From Rubidibacter lacunae KORDI 51-2 (GTDB taxonomy: Bacteria > Cyanobacteriota > Cyanobacteriia > Cyanobacteriales > Rubidibacteraceae): a stretch of 64,000 nt of DNA. Below the pieces are notes generated by a model. The model worked only from the letters and a program-made list of their open reading frames with translations. It made no database searches and was not told the origin of the DNA. The position numbers and the translations under genes are program-made. The stretch covers positions 62,001 to 126,000 of the forward strand of contig NZ_ASSJ01000035.1 of the NCBI RefSeq assembly GCF_000473895.1, read 5' to 3'. Positions 26,009-47,609 of this stretch are shown one piece after another; position 1 is the first letter of the stretch; every line of letters begins with the position of its first letter.

Positions 26009-26721
26009 TCCGTATCAGATCTTTAGGAGATTGACATGAGACATCTCCTGAAACCCCTGGAATCTGGCCACATGCTTGCGGGGTTTGAGGTACTTATGTC
26101 AGTCAGGAAGGAAACCACTCGAAGGCATTGCTTAGACGAAGCTGTCCCCCTGAGCAAGCAAAGGCATATATCACTCCCCATCCCCGCGGCTGCACCTCAA
26201 AGCCCTCTTGCTGTCGGCATACCCCCTCCAGGTGTTCCTTCTCCGCGCGCAGCAGAATCTTTAGTTACTCGGCACTTTCGCGTATTTCAACCTGAGAGAT
26301 GCCACTCGCCAGAGTTTTCTCAGGTCGCTGCCCCTCCACCTAGCAGCCGTTTCTCCATTTTTTTAGTTCGTATAACTTCGATGGAGCCGACTCTTGTAAC
26401 CCTTGCTACTAGGGGGATCGAAATTAAAAGCGGCTGTAGTTTAATCGCAACAAACTCTTTTGTTGAGAATGCGGGGTGTTTATCGCGGCAAATTGCAGTC
26501 ATTTGAGGATAGGCGATCGCATCGCGATCCCGAAAAGTATTTTCCAATAGGGATCTGACTATCTCTTGACTGATGAACACACATCTGCATATGTCTTGGT
26601 TGACAACCTTCCAAACCGGGTTTGATAAAGATTTTCACAACCGTCCGGGTTAAATCGTCTTGTTCTTGCCATCGGTCGTGCGACCGACGCTTGTAGCTGG
26701 AACCAACTGTTGGGACTGATT
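26009..26721. other. Non-coding DNA with IS630 remnant, upstream of STAND ATPase
   Basis: About 700 bp. It contains a short IS630 fragment (listed separately) and then a lower-GC stretch at 26360-26640 that probably includes the promoter of the ATPase gene. A frame at 26036-26506 is open but has no protein-like composition. Confidence 0.45.
26235..26365 (-). mobile_element. Fragment of IS630-family element (N-terminal end)
   Basis: About 130 bp resembling the start and upstream end of the decayed IS630 copy at 7.0-7.16 kb. On the minus strand it reads VEIRESAE-stop-LKILLRAEK, matching the N-terminus of cyanobacterial IS630 transposases (VEIRE, then EL). The start codon is lost and a stop interrupts the frame. 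It suggests that a second copy inserted here and was mostly deleted. Confidence 0.6.
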
Positions 26722-28023
26722 ATGAATGTCGATGACGCGATCGCGTTGTTCATAGAGTTGTGGCATCAACGCGATCCGCAAGGCTCTTTGAGCCCGATTC
26801 AGGAGCAAATCTTCCGGCGCAGTTGGGATGGAAGCTCCTACGAGGAAATCGCCCGCGATCTGGGTTACTCGCCTCACTATTTGCGTCAAGTCGGCTCGCA
26901 GCTCTGGCAGGTGCTTGGCTGGCTGACCGAGCGCTCGGTCAACAAGACCACCTTTCGGCTCGCGCTCGCGGAAATCGGTTCCGCTGCCGCACACTCCGAT
27001 AGCCCGCCTATTTTCATCAGTAGAGCAGAGCTGCCCGCGCAACTCTACGGCCGCACCTCAACCCTCGCGCTCCTGCGAAATTGGCTGGATCGCGATTGCT
27101 GCCGGCTTATCTCGATCCGCGGCGTTGGCGGCGTCGGGAAGACCGCACTGGCTGCCAAGTTAGTCGAACGGGTGGGGGGGAGCTTCGATCGTGTTATTTG
27201 GCATTCACTTTTTGCAGGAGGAAATTGTACGGGGTTGGTCGAAGCGATCGCGCGACGATATCCCAAGGACATTCCCCCGCCGACTGGGAGTAACGACCGA
27301 GTTGCTTGGCTCATGGCACAGTTGCGATCGCGGCGCTACTTGATCGTGCTCGACCGCTACGACGCTTTGTTCCGAACCGGCGAGCGGGCTGGACGCTACG
27401 AAAGCGAGAGCAAGCCCTACGAGCGGTTGTTAGAACGTGCTGTTGTTGAAGCCCACCAAAGCTGCTTGGTCCTGACCAGCCGCGAGCAGCTGGCTAATAT
27501 GCCGAGTGTTGGCAACTGCGCAAGGCCGGCACGCGAGCTCAAGTTGAGTGGATTGCTACCGGCTGCAGCTTGCAAGCTGCTGTGCGATCGCGGACTGCAG
27601 GCAAGTCCGGCCGAACTGCACGCCCTCACTCACCACTATGCAGGCAACCCCCGCGCCCTCCTGGTCGCAGCAACTCTGGCACGCCAAAAATTTTATGGCA
27701 TTGTTGCCCCGCTCCTGGCCTCCGACAAGACCTTCCCAGCCGAACTCGAGGACCTGCTCGGTACCCAATTTGCACGGCTGTCGGCAGGGGAGAAAACCCT
27801 CGCATGTTGGCTGGCTCGATGCGATCGCCCGACGGCTCGCTCAGCAATGCGATCGCAGTTGCGGAGCCAATTCCCGGGTCGGAATTTGACAGCAACACTT
27901 GACTCGCTCCAAGCACGGTCGTTGTTGTCAGAAGGGGGCGGAACCTGCGAACTCGAACCGCTGCTCAGGAGATATCTGCGCGCCAGCCATCCCGATGTAG
28001 TGTCCAACCGCCAGGCAAGTTGA
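26722..28023 (+). CDS. STAND (NB-ARC) ATPase with vMAP-type N-terminal HTH, short form
   Basis: A 433-residue signal-transduction NTPase. The first 85 residues resemble the helix-turn-helix found at the N-terminus of vWA-MoxR-associated proteins (LSPIQEQIFRRSWDGSSYEE, then IARDLGYSPHYLRQVGSQLW). An NB-ARC module follows: P-loop RGVGGVGKTALAAKL near 132, Walker B LIVLDRYD near 207, a sensor-like CLVLTSRE and GNPRALLVAATL near 307. A winged-helix-like segment ends the protein. Relatives usually carry WD40 or other repeats after this point; none is present, and only spacer follows. The start is ATG 26722; an in-frame TTG lies four codons earlier. It is an isolated gene between a MITE/IS remnant region and glcF. 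The function is unknown; such proteins are proposed to act in regulated cell-death or conflict systems. Confidence 0.82.
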   Translation: MNVDDAIALFIELWHQRDPQGSLSPIQEQIFRRSWDGSSYEEIARDLGYSPHYLRQVGSQLWQVLGWLTERSVNKTTFRLALAEIGSAAAHSDSPPIFISRAELPAQLYGRTSTLALLRNWLDRDCCRLISIRGVGGVGKTALAAKLVERVGGSFDRVIWHSLFAGGNCTGLVEAIARRYPKDIPPPTGSNDRVAWLMAQLRSRRYLIVLDRYDALFRTGERAGRYESESKPYERLLERAVVEAHQSCLVLTSREQLANMPSVGNCARPARELKLSGLLPAAACKLLCDRGLQASPAELHALTHHYAGNPRALLVAATLARQKFYGIVAPLLASDKTFPAELEDLLGTQFARLSAGEKTLACWLARCDRPTARSAMRSQLRSQFPGRNLTATLDSLQARSLLSEGGGTCELEPLLRRYLRASHPDVVSNRQAS

Positions 28024-42143: not shown

Positions 42144-42914
42144 TTAAATTGCCGCAGTTGCCGCTAGTGCGGTTCTGGTCGGTACGTTCTGGCGGCGGCG
42201 TGCTATCGCTGGCTCGCGGCCGTTGAGGTATCGGCTAAGACGACGCTTGAGTTGGGAACGAGCTTGTTGGACGCGCTTGCGCGCATTAGCATTCGTCAGT
42301 CCCAGGTAACTTGCGATTTGAGTGTAGGGCTGTTCTTGGCAATGGTGCAATACAAAGGGCTCGCGCAATCCGGCGGGCAGTTCGGAAATAGCGGTGCGGA
42401 GATGACAATTGAGTTCCTGGCGGAGAAGAACTGTCTCAGGGGACTCCATTCGCGAACGAATCGATCCGCTAGCAATCAGCTCTTCAATATCTCCAACAGG
42501 CATTGCCGCACGACCGCGCTCGCGATGCATATCGACGCAAAGGTTGTGCGTCATGCGAGTGAGCCACGCGCGCAGGTTTTCAATCCGATCCGCATAAACC
42601 GGAAGTTTTTCCCAAGCCTTGAGCGTTGCGCGACTGAGAGCTTCTTCTGCATCGTTTGGATTGCCGCCCATCCATATCAGACAGCGACGGTATAAATAAT
42701 CATTGTGCTGCCTCCATAACGGCCAGAATGCCGCGCGATCGCCCGCAGCTAGGCAACGCAGATACTGAGTGTGCTCCGCCTTACCTTTAGCAGAGTCTGG
42801 CGGATGCGAAGTCACTCGAGCAGCAGGCTGGCGAGCACGGCTTCTTATCGGTTGGTCTATACGTGCATTTCTCATATACGTAAGCAATGAATCAAGCTTT
42901 GTTCTTAGTATCAT
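42144..42914 (-). CDS. ECF-like sigma-70 factor divergent from AAA/CHASE2 operon
   Basis: A 256-residue alternative sigma factor with only regions 2 and 4. Region 2 is AFWPLWRQHNDYLYRRCLIW, then GGNPNDAEEALSRATLKAWE; region 4 is SELPAGLREPFVLHHCQEQ, then PYTQIASYLGLTNANARKRV, a helix-turn-helix for -35 recognition. The N-terminal 45 residues are basic and not conserved. No anti-sigma factor is adjacent. The gene diverges from the vMAP-HTH/AAA operon and shares a 184-bp promoter region containing 10-bp repeats, suggesting that it or another factor regulates that operon. Control of the neighbour is inferred. Confidence 0.88.
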   Translation of the reverse strand: MILRTKLDSLLTYMRNARIDQPIRSRARQPAARVTSHPPDSAKGKAEHTQYLRCLAAGDRAAFWPLWRQHNDYLYRRCLIWMGGNPNDAEEALSRATLKAWEKLPVYADRIENLRAWLTRMTHNLCVDMHRERGRAAMPVGDIEELIASGSIRSRMESPETVLLRQELNCHLRTAISELPAGLREPFVLHHCQEQPYTQIASYLGLTNANARKRVQQARSQLKRRLSRYLNGREPAIARRRQNVPTRTALAATAAI

Positions 42915-42998
42915 TGAGTTCGCCTTCGATTTGTTTAGCTAAAATCATGCCCTTTGAAACACCTGAAATGACCTCAACCTAAAGTTGAATACTGGCTG

Positions 42999-43030
42999 AT
43001 TCGGGTAAGTTCAGTTAAATTCAGGTAAAA
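42999..43030 (+). promoter_or_regulatory. Three phased 10-bp direct repeats in the divergent promoter
   Basis: TTCGGGTAAG, TTCAGTTAAA and TTCAGGTAAA follow head to tail at 43000, 43010 and 43020, one DNA turn apart. An inverted copy of the core (ACCTGAA) lies about 35 bp upstream at 42961. The repeats end about 70 bp before the ATG of the AAA gene and are 85 bp from the sigma start. This arrangement suits cooperative binding of a regulator on one DNA face. The protein is unknown. Confidence 0.55.
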
Positions 43031-43098
43031 TTCTGCAATGCGGGTTTGATGCCCGGTTCGAAAACGTCTTTACCCCCTCGATCCGAGTGCTAATTGCT

Positions 43099-44460
43099 AT
43101 GGAGTTCACGATCGACGAGGCTATCAAAGTTGCTAACCAAGTTGTCTTTGATAAAATTGGTAGAAATCTTACTGACGTCGAGATTTGGGTACTCGAAGGC
43201 TCGTGGGAGCGACTCGATTACGATCGAATTGCAGCTCGCAATCAGTACGCTGCTAGCTATATCAGCCAGGATGTAGCTCCCAAACTCTGGCGGCTACTTT
43301 CCGAAGCATTGGGCGAGCGCGTCAAGAAGAGTAACTTCCGCGAGGCACTCAAGCGGGCCTGGGACCAGCGACGGATTCCAATTACCCCGGTCTCTCCGCG
43401 CGCTCTCAAGCTTGCACCACTAGAACCTGTGCCATCGACGCCGCTGTCACCGAGCCTATACGTCGAACGCCCGCCACTCGAATCGCTATGTTACGACGCT
43501 CTCCTGCATCCAGGCGCGCTGGTTCGTGTTAAAGCACCAAGTCTGATGGGAAAAACATCATTGGTCGAGCGCGTTCTCGCTCAACTGTCAGAGCAGGGGT
43601 ATCGGACGGTCGGTCTTAGTTTCGAACTAGCGGAACGACGCACGCACTTCGACGCCTTGGACCGTTTTTTGCGCTGGTTTTGTTTGAACCTGACTCGTGA
43701 GTTGGGATTACCTATCCAGCTTGAAGATTACTGGGACTCAGCCGGCATGGGGTCTAAAGTGAGCTGCACGACTTATTTCGAGGAATACCTGCTCGCACAG
43801 TCCGACAGTCCACTCGTATTGTGTTTGGACGATGTCGATTTGCTATTTCCATATCCAGTAATCTATGAAGATTTTTTTGGACTGCTGCGTTCTTGGTATG
43901 AGAAGGGACGCAGTCGTAAGATCTGGAAGCGCCTGCGATTGGCGATCGTGCACTCTACCGACGTGTATATCCGGCTCAATATCAACCAATCGCCATTTAA
44001 TGTCGGTTTGCCGATCGAGCTGACGGAGTTTACGCCCGAGCAAGTCGAAGAGTTCGCCAACCTTCACGACCTAGAACTGGATGCAGCACAAATCGGTGTG
44101 GAGGGACTCGCACTGCTGATGGAACACGTGGGCGGTCACCCATATCTCATCGAACAAGCTCTCTCGCATCTCAAAGGACATCCCCACGAGACGCTCGGGC
44201 ACGTGCTCGACAACTCACCTACCGAAGCCGGGATTTACGCCAATCACTTGCGCGAATATCTGATCGGGCTGCAGCAGGTACCGGAGTTGGCAAATGCCTG
44301 CCAGCGCGTGATGGCGGCAACCACTCCTGTAAAGATCGACCCCGTGCATGCCTATCAATTACAGAGCATGGGCCTGGTGCGATTGCTCGGAAACGAGGTC
44401 GAGCCGCGCTGCTATCTTTATCGCACTTACTTCCGCGATCGCCTAGGAGAATTTGCATGA
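43099..44460 (+). CDS. vMAP-type HTH fused to AAA_35 ATPase
   Basis: A 453-residue protein. Residues 1-85 match the N-terminal HTH of vWA-MoxR-associated proteins ([20 protein letters not shown], then [20 protein letters not shown] and [15 protein letters not shown]), the same domain type as in the STAND gene at 26.7 kb. An AAA_35 ATPase follows: Walker [16 protein letters not shown] near 150, Walker [14 protein letters not shown] near 240, and [14 protein letters not shown] near 355. I start at ATG 43099; the frame begins four codons earlier with GTG. The stop overlaps the next gene start (ATGA). This is the first gene of the operon and probably a DNA-binding or signalling ATPase working with the CHASE2 protein. 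Confidence 0.86.
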
Positions 44461-46868
44461 CCGCCCGTTCCCAGACTTACCAACCCGGCGGCAGCTTGCC
44501 GGCAGATGCCTCCACATATGTGGTGCGTCGTTCGGATGCCGAATTGTGCGAGGCATTATTGGCGGGAGAGTACTGCTATGTGCTCAACTCCCGGCAGATG
44601 GGCAAGTCTAGCTTGCGGGTCCGAACGATGGATCGGCTTCAGGCACGCAACGTTGCCTGCGCTGAAATCGAACTGTCGGGTATTGGCAGTCAAGAGATCG
44701 CCGCGCAACAGTGGTATGGCGGAATCGTTCAGGAGTTGATCAGCGGCTTCAACCTCCAGGTCAATCGCCAGCGTTGGCTGCGAGATCGTGACGACCTTTC
44801 ACCCGTACAGCGCTTGGGGGAGTTTATCGAAACGGTGTTACTCGTCCATATCCAAGGTAATTTAGTGATCTTCATCGACGAGATCGACAGCGTACTCAGT
44901 CTCCGCTTTGCAACTGACGAATTTTTTGCACTGATCCGCTCCTGCTACGATCGGCGGGCGCGGCGGCCGGAATATAGGCGACTTGCATTCGCCTTACTCG
45001 GAGTAGCCACACCTTCAGATCTGATCGGCGACCCGCACTCTACGCCCTTCAATATCGGTAGGGCGGTCGATTTGTGCGGGTTCGAATTACAGGAGTGCGG
45101 TCCGCTGGCGGCTGGATTGGCTGGCATTGCCGAGCAGCCGCATGCAGCGATCGCGTCGGTACTGGCCTGGACGGGGGGACAACCATTTCTGACGCAGAAA
45201 CTGTGTTGGCTGCTAATCGACAGCGCGCAAAAAATTCCGAGCGGTGGCGAAACTGCAGCGGTGGCGCACATCGTTCGCAAGCGCGTGCTGACGCACTGGG
45301 AATCCCAAGACAATCCCGAGCACTTGCGGACGATTCGCGATCGCTTCCGCCGCAACCCGCGCGACTGCGAGCACCTGTTGCGGCTCTATCGGAGCGTTCT
45401 GAACCGGGGTGCAATTGCGAGTAGTAATCGCGCCGATCGCATGGCTCTGCGTCTGTCGGGAATCGTCAGCAATGTCAACGGCAAGCTAACGGTCAAAAAC
45501 CGTATCTACGCAACTGTATTCGATCGCGTCTGGGTGGACGAGCAACTGCGAGCGCTGCGCCTGCGAGAGGCTAAGCCCCCCAAGTGGTTCGTACCAGCCG
45601 TCAGTGCCTTGAGTGCAACTGCGGTGATGCTCGCCCGCTGGTATGGAGCGTTGCAAGGCATAGAATTGCCAGCCTTCGATCGCTTGCTGTCCCGACTGCC
45701 CCTGCAGCCATCGGACGAGCGCTTATTGATCGTCGGTGCAACGGAAGCAGATGTCGGCCCTCAAGGCTATGGCTTTCCCCTGCCCGACACGACCCTAGCC
45801 GAACTGATCGATACATTAGAGCAATATCAGCCGCGCGTCATCGGCATTGACATCATTCGCGACCAGCCAGAATTGCCCGGCAGAGTGGCGTTCGAAAGGC
45901 ATCTGGAGCGTAACGAAAACGTCGTTGCAATCTGCGCGTTTGGCGGGGCGACCGATACGCGCATCCTGCCACCCGCTGCAATCGCAGGCGATCGACTGGG
46001 CTTTGCCGACTTGTTTTCCGATGCGGATCTGTTTGCTGGTGACGGAATCTCGGGCGGCAGCGTAACGGCAGCCGGTCCTGCAACCGACATCTTTGCAAAG
46101 CCACAACCGGTCACGCGGGAAAATGCAGTTGTTAGGCGCTACCTACTCTCGCACTCGCCCCCCGAATCAGACAACCCATGCTCGACTCAGTATTCTTTCG
46201 GCTTGCAGCTTGCGCTGCGCTATCTTCGAGCCGAGGGCATCGCGATCGGAACGGAAGCGGGCAACTGGCAGCTAGGCTCATCCGTACTTCAACGACTCCA
46301 GTCCCGCAGTGGCGGCTACCAAACTCTCGACGCAAACGGCAATCAATTGCTCGTACGCTATCGCAACCTGCTCTACCCACAGGCGATCGCCCGTCAAGTA
46401 TCCGTGCAGTCAATTCTCGATGGCGGCAAAGGCGCGCGCTTCGATCCCGATTGGGTCAAGGACCGGATCGTGATAATCGGCGTCGTTGCCGACTCCGTGC
46501 GCGACGATCACGACACGCCCTACGGAGAAATGCGCGGGATTCACATCCACGCCCACCTCATCAGCCACCTACTCGATGCAGCGACGGACGAGGGGGTTCT
46601 GTTTTGGTGGTGGCCGCAATGGGGGGATGCACTGTGGGTGTTGAGTTGGTCGCTAACCGGTGGAGCGGTGGTCGCGATCGCTAGGCGACCCTGGCAGCAG
46701 GCTACCGTGGCAGTCGCGCTTTGTCTCGTCAACTATGGAGTCTGCTGGATGGCCCTCCTGTACAGCTGCTGGCTCCCGCTCGTCCCGGTTGCTATCAGCA
46801 TCGTTAGCGCATCTACTGGCGTAGCAGCTTATTCGATCTACCTGCGCTTCCAAAGACAACATTCCTAA
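44457..46868 (+). CDS. AAA_35 ATPase with membrane CHASE2 sensor domain
   Basis: An 803-residue membrane protein. The N-terminal AAA_35 ATPase starts [20 protein letters not shown], then Walker [16 protein letters not shown] near 50 and Walker [16 protein letters not shown] near 140, and [14 protein letters not shown] near 243. One hydrophobic helix (about 375-395) leads to a CHASE2 extracytoplasmic sensor (about 420-700; [19 protein letters not shown]-like [43 protein letters not shown]). Three transmembrane helices end the protein. Usual CHASE2 proteins place a kinase or cyclase after the helices; here the only output domain is the N-terminal ATPase. The overlap with the preceding gene (ATGA) implies coupled translation, and DUF928 follows after 21 bp. 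Confidence 0.9.
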
Positions 46869-46889
46869 AGCAACCCCGGAATCTTCACT

Positions 46890-47609
46890 ATGACACCATT
46901 AACAATTTCGTCCCGCGCGATCGCTATGGCGATCGCGCTTGGATCGATCCCGGCAACAGCCCTCGCTCAATCCACTGCGTCGGATCGTTCCGCCAAGGAT
47001 GCGAATGTATCGCTCCCCGAGCCGCCCGAGAACGGCACACCGGGCGGCGACCCAACACCTGGCGCAACTCGACCGGAGTCGAGTTGCGCGCTCGACCCCC
47101 AACAACCCGAGCTGACAGCGCTCTATGCCAATCGAGGTCACGACGTGACGGCATTCGAACAACCGACTTTTTGGTTTTACGTGCCCTTGGCTCGAGAGCA
47201 GGTAGCAGGCGCGCAGTTCGTTTTGTTGAACGCTACCGAACGAAAAACTCTGCACCGCCATCGCGAGATCGCAGTCCCGAATGCACCCGGTTTCTTCAGC
47301 GTGACCTTGCCTCCCGAGGTTGGACTGGAAGCCGGTGGGTTGTATCGCTGGTATTTCCTTCTCGATTGCGCGCCCGATCGCACCGAAGACCCGGACTTGG
47401 TCGTCAGCGGATGGGTACGCCGTATGCTCGGAAATCGCTTCCCGATGGGCGGTCCATTGGACAATCCATCCAATGATGCGATCGCGGAGATTGCCGAGCG
47501 CCTGGCGGCCGAGCCCGACGATCCAAGCCACCAACAAAGCTGGATGGAGCTGCTCGAAACTCTCGGGCGCGCCGAACTGATTGGCGTACCATTTATCGGG
47601 ATGGAGTAA
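46890..47609 (+). CDS. DUF928 exported protein
   Basis: A 239-residue protein with a signal peptide (TISSRAIAMAIALGSIPATA, then LAQS). A proline/glycine-rich low-complexity region follows to about residue 60. The DUF928 domain comprises LTALYANRGHDVTAFEQPTF, WFYVPL, FVLLNATERKTLHRHREIA and GGLYRWYFLLDCAPDRTED, then VVSGWVRRM. The role of DUF928 is unknown; it recurs in cyanobacteria beside CHASE2 proteins and outer-membrane secretion proteins, so a partner or ligand-like role outside the cell is plausible. It is the last gene of this operon. Confidence 0.87.
   Translation: MTPLTISSRAIAMAIALGSIPATALAQSTASDRSAKDANVSLPEPPENGTPGGDPTPGATRPESSCALDPQQPELTALYANRGHDVTAFEQPTFWFYVPLAREQVAGAQFVLLNATERKTLHRHREIAVPNAPGFFSVTLPPEVGLEAGGLYRWYFLLDCAPDRTEDPDLVVSGWVRRMLGNRFPMGGPLDNPSNDAIAEIAERLAAEPDDPSHQQSWMELLETLGRAELIGVPFIGME

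What the first reader, a model, noticed from the sequence alone, without database searches (positions are those of the whole stretch)
42144..47609. Sigma / vMAP-HTH-AAA_35 / AAA_35-CHASE2 / DUF928 cassette
A divergent ECF-like sigma gene faces an operon of two AAA_35 NTPases overlapping by ATGA, one with an N-terminal vMAP-type HTH and one with a membrane CHASE2 sensor, followed by an exported DUF928 protein. Together these could sense an extracellular signal (CHASE2/DUF928), use ATPase switching and alter transcription (sigma, HTH). Individual domains are known to co-occur in cyanobacteria, but the pathway has no defined function that I know of.
Basis: partly seen in the sequence, partly recalled or inferred. 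Interest (0 to 1): 0.62.

Follow-up and report, generated by a model that had tools for sequence, protein, structure and literature searches.

The report
Membrane-sensor ATPase switch with operator array
A cyanobacterial gene set pairs a membrane-anchored sensor ATPase with a DNA-binding ATPase whose promoter carries evenly spaced repeats that go with its type of DNA-binding domain, which suggests a little-studied way to turn an outside signal into gene expression, in some relatives beside genes for secreted proteins.

Summary
In detail: an ECF-like sigma gene (42144-42914, -) faces an operon of HTH-AAA_35 ("A", likely start 43099), AAA_35-CHASE2 ("B", ATGA overlap) and a DUF928 protein with a signal peptide ("C"). 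(1) B-CHASE2 with C: DUF928 lies within 3 kb of 13 of 25 CHASE2-type B genes and 0 of 55 others, with CHAT (9 of 25) and two-partner-secretion genes (10 of 25) nearby. (2) Sigma facing an HTH gene: 12 of 42 sigma relatives, 1 of 340 other genes. Sigma is not part of module 1 (0 of 25). New: the sigma-A gap holds three 10-bp direct repeats (43000-43029). Such arrays occur in 13 of 19 loci whose A is at least 57% identical to this one and 0 of 85 others; repeat unit and period track the type of A's N-terminal domain (0 of 2000 permutations). Folds are STAND/ORC-like. Best reading: A is a MalT-like STAND regulator reading its own operator and controlled by membrane partner B; here the operator also serves sigma. 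Binding, partnership and signal are untested; held-out tests with more distant A genes were mostly negative.

The parts
42144..42914 (-). ECF-like sigma factor (regions 2 and 4_2, no region 3)
   Evidence: Pfam and NCBIfam sigma70-ECF superfamily; relatives recur facing HTH genes
43000..43029 (+). three 10-bp direct repeats TTCGGGTAAG TTCAGTTAAA TTCAGGTAAA, operator-like, in the sigma/A intergenic gap
   Evidence: (0 of 500 shuffles); the only such array found in the genome by pattern search
43099..44460 (+). A: HTH-AAA_35 NTPase (GTG at 43087 possible, ATG 43099 better by alignment)
   Evidence: model mean pLDDT 88; STAND/ORC-like fold
43099..43386 (+). N-terminal HTH-like domain of A (type I)
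   Evidence: similar to sigma region 4; helices; type goes with array
44457..46868 (+). B: AAA_35-CHASE2 membrane protein; helix 378-395, CHASE2 about 400-710, helices 721-741, 745-768, 775-802
   Evidence: Pfam, alignments, model, fold search
45618..46664 (+). CHASE2 domain of B
   Evidence: Pfam residues 388-736
46890..47609 (+). C: DUF928 protein, signal peptide by eye (cleavage near ALA-QST)
   Evidence: Pfam; translation; goes with CHASE2-type B

Best explanation
This is a two-ATPase switch. Shown: A and B carry STAND/ORC-type NTPase modules with invariant Walker A and GxP residues; B is built as a membrane protein with a CHASE2 domain between one helix and three more; C is built for export; A's promoter carries a three-fold 10-bp array whose unit and period go with the class of A's N-terminal domain across genomes. 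Inferred: A binds the array as a row of monomers one helical turn apart, as the STAND regulator MalT does on direct repeats (recalled), and so controls its own operon. B holds or releases A, or joins its oligomer, according to what CHASE2 (perhaps with C as periplasmic partner) detects. In this genome the array is unique and lies in the gap to the divergent sigma gene, so the wider response would be relayed by sigma. In relatives the same arrays lie in front of separate B-CHASE2 genes and beside DUF928, peptidase-ABC exporter or RTX genes, so the output there may be exoprotein secretion.
For: Array against shuffles: 0 of 500. Tandem arrays (score at least 22) upstream of A genes 7/36 + 9/36, control genes 14/927, B 5/121, sigma 1/44, which is this same array. 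Strict iteron arrays (score at least 52): 16 in the scanned loci, 0 in each of 12 order-2 shuffles. Presence anywhere in a locus by identity of A to the window's A: at least 57%, 13 of 19 (the window included); 45-57%, 0 of 50; under 45%, 0 of 35. Repeat class goes with N-terminal type: I 10 bp (11 of 12 arrays), III 11 bp (9 of 9), IV 10 bp (4 of 4), types II and other none (0 of 9, 0 of 31 genes); within/between similarity 0 of 2000 permutations. G002's sigma/A gap has six 10-bp units by eye. Where A and B-CHASE2 are apart (L174, L176, L181) the array stands before B. The nearest new relative, L298, has it. Folds of A: Z 21 to 2qen and 20 to 2fna, 16-18 to CED-4 and plant NLRs, 13.7 to the MalT entry 8bob. 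A and B are mostly neighbours: A upstream on the same strand within 3 kb in 17 of 25 and 32 of 55 B loci.
Against: No binding, interaction or expression data. A genes form clades, so array class and HTH type are not independent observations. Held-out sets were weak: 3 of 26 more distant A genes passed the tandem threshold (2 of 14 type I, AT-rich, and 1 other), and 3 of 19 new type I genes, only L298 with this unit. Four of 17 loci with a window-like A (57% or more) and type I N-terminus lack the array, one of them cut by a contig end. Several arrays stand by genes other than A or B (L067, L075, L245). No sigma of this family lies within 5 kb of 25 CHASE2-type B genes. In this genome CHAT and TPS genes lie about 23-28 kb away, with no array found near them.
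Confidence: 0.45

Rival explanations
1. The array belongs to another regulator (for example an OmpR-family response regulator that uses 10-11 bp direct repeats, such as the cyanobacterial HLR1 or Pho boxes, recalled), and A acts by other means.
For: Period 10-11 is common for OmpR-family sites (recalled). The reverse strand reads TTTACCTGAA, which shares TTTAC with my recalled HLR1 consensus. Held-out A genes mostly lack arrays.
Against: Unit and period change with A's N-terminal type; among the 104 A loci tallied the array occurs only with a window-like A; it is unique in this genome, unlike a global regulator's box.
Confidence: 0.2
2. The sigma gene is a chance or merely local neighbour: the functional unit is A-B-C, and sigma belongs to its own HTH-linked module.
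For: 0 of 25 CHASE2-type B genes have a sigma of this family within 5 kb. In the seven divergent sigma/HTH-AAA_35 pairs of other genomes the nearby genes on A's side that I scanned are unrelated (YcaO, TP_methylase, TPR, amine oxidase, amidohydrolase, FTR1, or no Pfam match) or, in L137, a kinase-AAA_35 fusion.
Against: 12 of 42 sigma relatives face an HTH or AAA_35 gene within 850 bp, 11 of 40 without the two loci picked knowing that AAA_35 was near, against 1 of 340 other genes of the same loci; the array lies between the two starts here and in G002; L165 has similar units upstream of its sigma.
Confidence: 0.4
3. It is a conflict or programmed-death module: B senses damage or invaders, and nearby CHAT proteases are the effectors, as proposed for related cyanobacterial systems.
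For: STAND-like folds close to NLR and Avs proteins; CHAT within 8 kb of 9 of 25 CHASE2-type B genes against 2 of 55; PMC8195603 (passages read) describes caspase-EACC2 genes with CHASE2, an ECF sigma factor and DUF1822 as a sensing system tied to apoptosis and immunity.
Against: The only PADLOC match of the four proteins up to E 0.1 is E 0.036, to the sigma protein. No CHAT or caspase match in the cassette itself. CHAT genes often stand with TPS exoproteins and are fused to TPS in L082, L186 and this genome, which points to secretion.
Confidence: 0.15

Closest known systems
MalT-type STAND transcription activators
   Same: STAND-like NTPase plus DNA-binding domain, direct-repeat operator, control by a membrane-bound partner (MalK) (MalT facts recalled); 8bob is among the fold matches, Z 13.7
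   Different: DNA-binding domain at the N-terminus and of another type; no long sensor region in A; sensing is apparently placed in a second, membrane NTPase (B)
EACC2-caspase / ECF sigma / DUF1822 systems (PMC8195603, passages read)
   Same: found in multicellular bacteria including cyanobacteria, CHASE2 as one variable sensor domain, linked ECF sigma
   Different: no caspase-EACC2 and no DUF1822 match here; two AAA_35 NTPases instead; the term DUF928 does not occur in its main text
NOSP7 cluster of WD40, CHASE2 and DUF928 genes (PMC5587647, passage read)
   Same: CHASE2 sensor gene close to a DUF928 gene; that paper also infers signalling
   Different: the paper reports it only in NOSP7 among 7 species; no AAA_35 pair, operator or secretion link in the passage seen
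r4_2 + accessory-domain 'sigma' proteins of cyanobacteria (PMC11119718, passages read)
   Same: AAA_35 (2.80%) and NB-ARC (9.09%) are listed among accessory domains of sigma70 homologs, perhaps proteins like A
   Different: classified there as sigma factors; neighbourhood and operators not described in the passages seen

Membership tests
STAND NTPase | P-loop NTPase with Walker A GK[ST], acidic Walker B and a GxP motif (motifs recalled) | tested here: met
   Invariant G151 K152, D244 and G346-x-P348 in 25 A sequences; G49 K50 S51, E142 and D144, G241-Q242-P243 in 21 B sequences
STAND NTPase | NTPase fold with following helical and winged-helix parts | tested here: met
   A: 2qen Z 21.1 over 309 residues, CED-4 and NLRs Z 16-18; B: 2qen, 1w5t, 2fna best by Foldseek. 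ORC/Cdc6 folds score similarly, so STAND and ORC are not cleanly separated
STAND NTPase | signal-driven oligomerisation | not testable with these tools
   needs biochemistry
ECF sigma factor | regions 2 and 4 only | tested here: met
   no region 1.2 or 3 match
ECF sigma factor | cognate anti-sigma gene next to it | tested here: inconclusive
   none recognised: A and the convergent enolase flank it. Four of five sigma-downstream genes scanned in relatives (L132, L136, L137, L140; not L161) are TPR proteins of unknown role
vWA-MoxR-VMAP ternary system | MoxR ATPase, vWA protein and VMAP in one locus | tested here: not met
   none among the four genes or the flanking eno and rtcB; most other window genes were not scanned
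EACC2-caspase ECF/DUF1822 system | caspase-EACC2 protein and DUF1822 | tested here: not met
   no caspase or DUF1822 match in the six genes scanned
vMAP-type HTH domain | match to the published family model | not testable with these tools
   the model recalled is not in the library; no Pfam match above cut-off
MalT-type regulators | binding to direct-repeat operators | tested here: inconclusive
   array present and correlated with HTH type; binding not measured

The most novel reading that the evidence does not exclude
A split STAND signalling system: a membrane CHASE2-STAND receptor and a DNA-reading STAND partner form one switch on iterated operators. Several N-terminal types each pair with their own repeat code (10 or 11 bp), and the outputs are exoprotein secretion (TPS, CHAT, RTX, C39 exporters) or, here, an ECF sigma factor. 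That would make it a class of prokaryotic one-turn-per-subunit transcription platforms driven by NLR-like ATPases.
Probability: 0.3. Interest if true: 0.8.

Novelty: new variant of a known kind. Interest (0 to 1): 0.6.

Why it matters
AAA_35, CHASE2 and DUF928 proteins are common in cyanobacteria, and I found no defined pathway for them in the papers seen. This work gives a concrete, quickly testable prediction: which domain reads which DNA repeat, and which genes are its targets. If right, it links NLR-like ATPases to signal-driven transcription rather than to cell death, and ties a membrane sensor family to control of secreted surface proteins.

Tried and rejected
Single conserved four-gene cassette: rejected, no sigma of this family within 5 kb of 25 CHASE2-type B genes. 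Defence system by PADLOC: one match, E 0.036, to the sigma protein. Operator regulon in this genome: the two-repeat pattern gave the window site at 0 and 1 mismatches and five others at 2-3 mismatches, about as many as the reversed control (4 hits), so no further targets. Promoter and terminator scan: fewer matches than in shuffles, nothing usable. Shared two-part promoter motif upstream of 45 sigma genes: the best pairs are in 4 of 45, none convincing. Two hexamers that occur in the repeat's reverse strand are enriched there (ACCTGA 12 of 45 against 59 of 921; TTAACT 16 of 45 against 127 of 921), but longer forms are not (TTACCTGA 1 of 45), so this is weak. Empty-site test at enolase in eight same-family genomes: the other flanking genes that I searched for are not near enolase there, uninformative. 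Sequence search of solved structures with the A profile: none at E 0.1. A loose iteron scan gave many chance arrays and was replaced by a stricter one. In the fold lists the ATPase part fills the rows, so the HTH part was not tested against solved HTH structures. Literature: the listings of searches showed no paper on an AAA_35-CHASE2-DUF928 system; 16 (either-term, 20 of 42,885 listed) and 73 (ambiguous term) are weak, and only open-licence papers are held.
Full report
WHAT IS THERE. Window 42144-47609 holds four genes as described: an ECF-like sigma factor on the minus strand; on the plus strand A (HTH-AAA_35, 43087/43099-44460), B (AAA_35-CHASE2, 44457-46868, ATGA overlap) and C (DUF928, 46890-47609). 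Pfam supports each above cut-off. The set lies between enolase and rtcB. The genome (4.15 Mb, 99.6% complete) has no other AAA_35 gene and no other DUF928 gene. A's N-terminus has no Pfam match above cut-off. A profile of 45 such domains resembles sigma region 4 over 22 columns (probability 77%; region 2 as control 0.1%). The models give A mean pLDDT 88 and B 82.

FOLDS. A's ATPase part matches archaeal 2qen (Z 21.1, rmsd 4.0, 309 residues), 2fna (20.1), ORC2 1w5t (18.6), CED-4 (up to 18.1) and plant NLRs (16-18); the MalT complex 8bob is listed at 13.7 (Foldseek list). B's best Foldseek matches include 2qen, 1w5t and 2fna. Walker A and a GxP motif are invariant in A (25 sequences) and in B (21 sequences). 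So both are STAND/ORC-like NTPases. B's model has one helix (378-395) before CHASE2 and three after it, the layout expected of a membrane sensor.

THE A-B-C MODULE. Of these, 25 have CHASE2 and 55 do not. DUF928 within 3 kb: 13 of 25 against 0 of 55 (Fisher p 1.7e-8); 12 of 25 lack it there. CHAT within 8 kb: 9 against 2. TPS within 8 kb: 10 against 1. ShlB within 10 kb: 1 against 0. A upstream on the same strand within 3 kb: 17 against 32. Sigma of this family within 5 kb: 0 against 1. Pfam confirms CHAT in six, TPS in two and ShlB in one of the neighbour proteins scanned. Two loci have C39-peptidase ABC exporters and two have RTX-repeat proteins (four of eight proteins). In this genome a CHAT gene and a TPS gene lie on the same contig about 23 and 28 kb downstream of C, and two TPS-CHAT fusions lie on another contig. 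The AAA_35-CHASE2 fusion, searched by its junction, was listed 29 times in 20 of 291 genomes of the order, this one included. In the eight other genomes of the family no match was as strong as any junction-spanning one (best 9e-29 against 4e-49 or better; list truncated, split variants missed).

THE SIGMA-HTH PAIR. I fetched 38 loci from the sigma search, out of about 150 listed places: 36 by score and spread, and two (L161, L165) knowing that AAA_35 lay on the same contig. Of 42 sigma genes in them, 12 face an HTH or HTH-AAA_35 gene within 850 bp (11 of 40 without those two loci), against 1 of 340 other genes of the same loci; in B-centred loci, where A genes are present by selection, 44 of 744 genes do. 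Seven partners are HTH-AAA_35 (L132, L134, L137, L140, L141, L159, L161). Of the other five, three are HTH-REC-PAS (L133, L136, L163), L164 has no Pfam match and L150 was not scanned. The genes that I scanned on A's side of the AAA_35 pairs are mostly unrelated. Thus the window combines two recurring associations. G002, of the same family, has the same sigma/A arrangement with a fragmentary B (L100).

THE ARRAY. Between the sigma and A starts lie TTCGGGTAAG TTCAGTTAAA TTCAGGTAAA (43000-43029), not reached in 500 shuffles. Unbiased by sequence, such three-fold arrays (score at least 22) precede 7 of 36 type I A genes and 9 of 36 other A genes but 14 of 927 control genes, 5 of 121 B genes and 1 of 44 sigma genes, which is this array (at score 21 the control rate is 37 of 927). 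With N-termini sorted into types (105 A genes, 103 with usable upstream DNA), arrays (score at least 21) are found in type I (12 of 41 genes, 11 of them 10 bp), type III (9 of 16, all 11 bp with a GACTT/GAGTT core) and type IV (4 of 6, all 10 bp), and not in type II (0 of 9) or the rest (0 of 31). Units are more alike within than between types (6.46 against 4.83 of 10; 0 of 2000 permutations). A stricter scan for the window-type unit found 16 arrays against none in 12 shuffled sets. They lie before A, before B-CHASE2, beside DUF928, or near exporter (L067), RTX (L064, L245) or subtilase/PatG-type (L075) genes. By locus, anywhere in the stretch held: 13 of 19 with an A at least 57% identical to the window's, 0 of 50 at 45-57%, 0 of 35 below; L064, which has the strongest array, was not tallied because its A is cut at the locus end. 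The sigma/A gap of G002 has, by eye, six 10-bp units of a related sequence.

RESULTS AGAINST. The weight matrix was drawn after seeing some arrays, and A types are clades, so the permutation test overstates independence. In 26 further A genes, 3 passed the tandem threshold (2 of 14 type I, AT-rich; 1 of 8 other; 11 already used were skipped). In 19 new type I genes 3 passed, and only the closest, L298, has this unit. So the repeat code is firm only for the close clade. L190 and L101 are among the 19 at 57% or more but lack a type I N-terminus; L065, L165 and L072 have one and no array at the threshold, and L042 is cut by its contig.

HOW IT PROBABLY WORKS. Shown: architecture, folds, neighbourhood statistics, array and its correlation with A's N-terminal type. 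Inferred: A reads the array, one subunit per turn, and controls its own operon and the sigma gene; B's CHASE2 state sets A's activity across the membrane through their related ATPase modules; C is a periplasmic partner of CHASE2 (among the 80 B loci it is found only with CHASE2-type B). In this genome the array was found once, so any broad response would have to pass through sigma. In relatives the output may be secretion of surface proteins.

KNOWN WORK. PMC8195603 (passages) describes caspase-EACC2 genes with CHASE2, ECF sigma and DUF1822; PMC5587647 (passage) a CHASE2-DUF928-WD40 cluster and a reported acid response of sll1891; PMC11119718 (passages) sigma70 homologs with AAA_35 or NB-ARC; PMC7159879 (passages) the VMAP systems. 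None describes this pair or the arrays in what I read. MalT, HLR1 and Pho-box statements are recalled.

Noticed in passing
window 26710-28023 (+): A second protein with a similar N-terminal HTH (weak Sigma70_r4_2 match, below cut-off) fused to an NB-ARC/NACHT-type NTPase.
   Followed up: partly
L264:6794-9565 and L264:11418-14120 (G000 contig C35, beyond the window): CHAT protein and TPS exoprotein about 23-28 kb downstream of the cassette on the same contig; no repeat array found near them.
   Followed up: partly
L265:4863-13694 and L265:13975-17823: Two tandem TPS-CHAT fusion proteins (2943 and 1282 aa) with the same first 45 residues: an apparently secreted CHAT protease family.
   Followed up: no
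L067:939-3158 and L195:5691-7889: C39-peptidase ABC exporters beside A/B loci, with a small ORF in L195 (8404-8790) that by eye may have a double-glycine leader.
   Followed up: no
L249:3616-4923 (upstream), also L242, L239, L234, L232, L222, L219, L214, L204: Nine other HTH-AAA_35 genes with a Cro/CI-like N-terminus are preceded by 11-bp GACTT/GAGTT-type repeats.
   Followed up: partly
L136:7766-8968, L133:7754-8944, L163:7901-9127: HTH-REC-PAS proteins with the same N-terminal domain type face the same ECF-like sigma family.
   Followed up: partly
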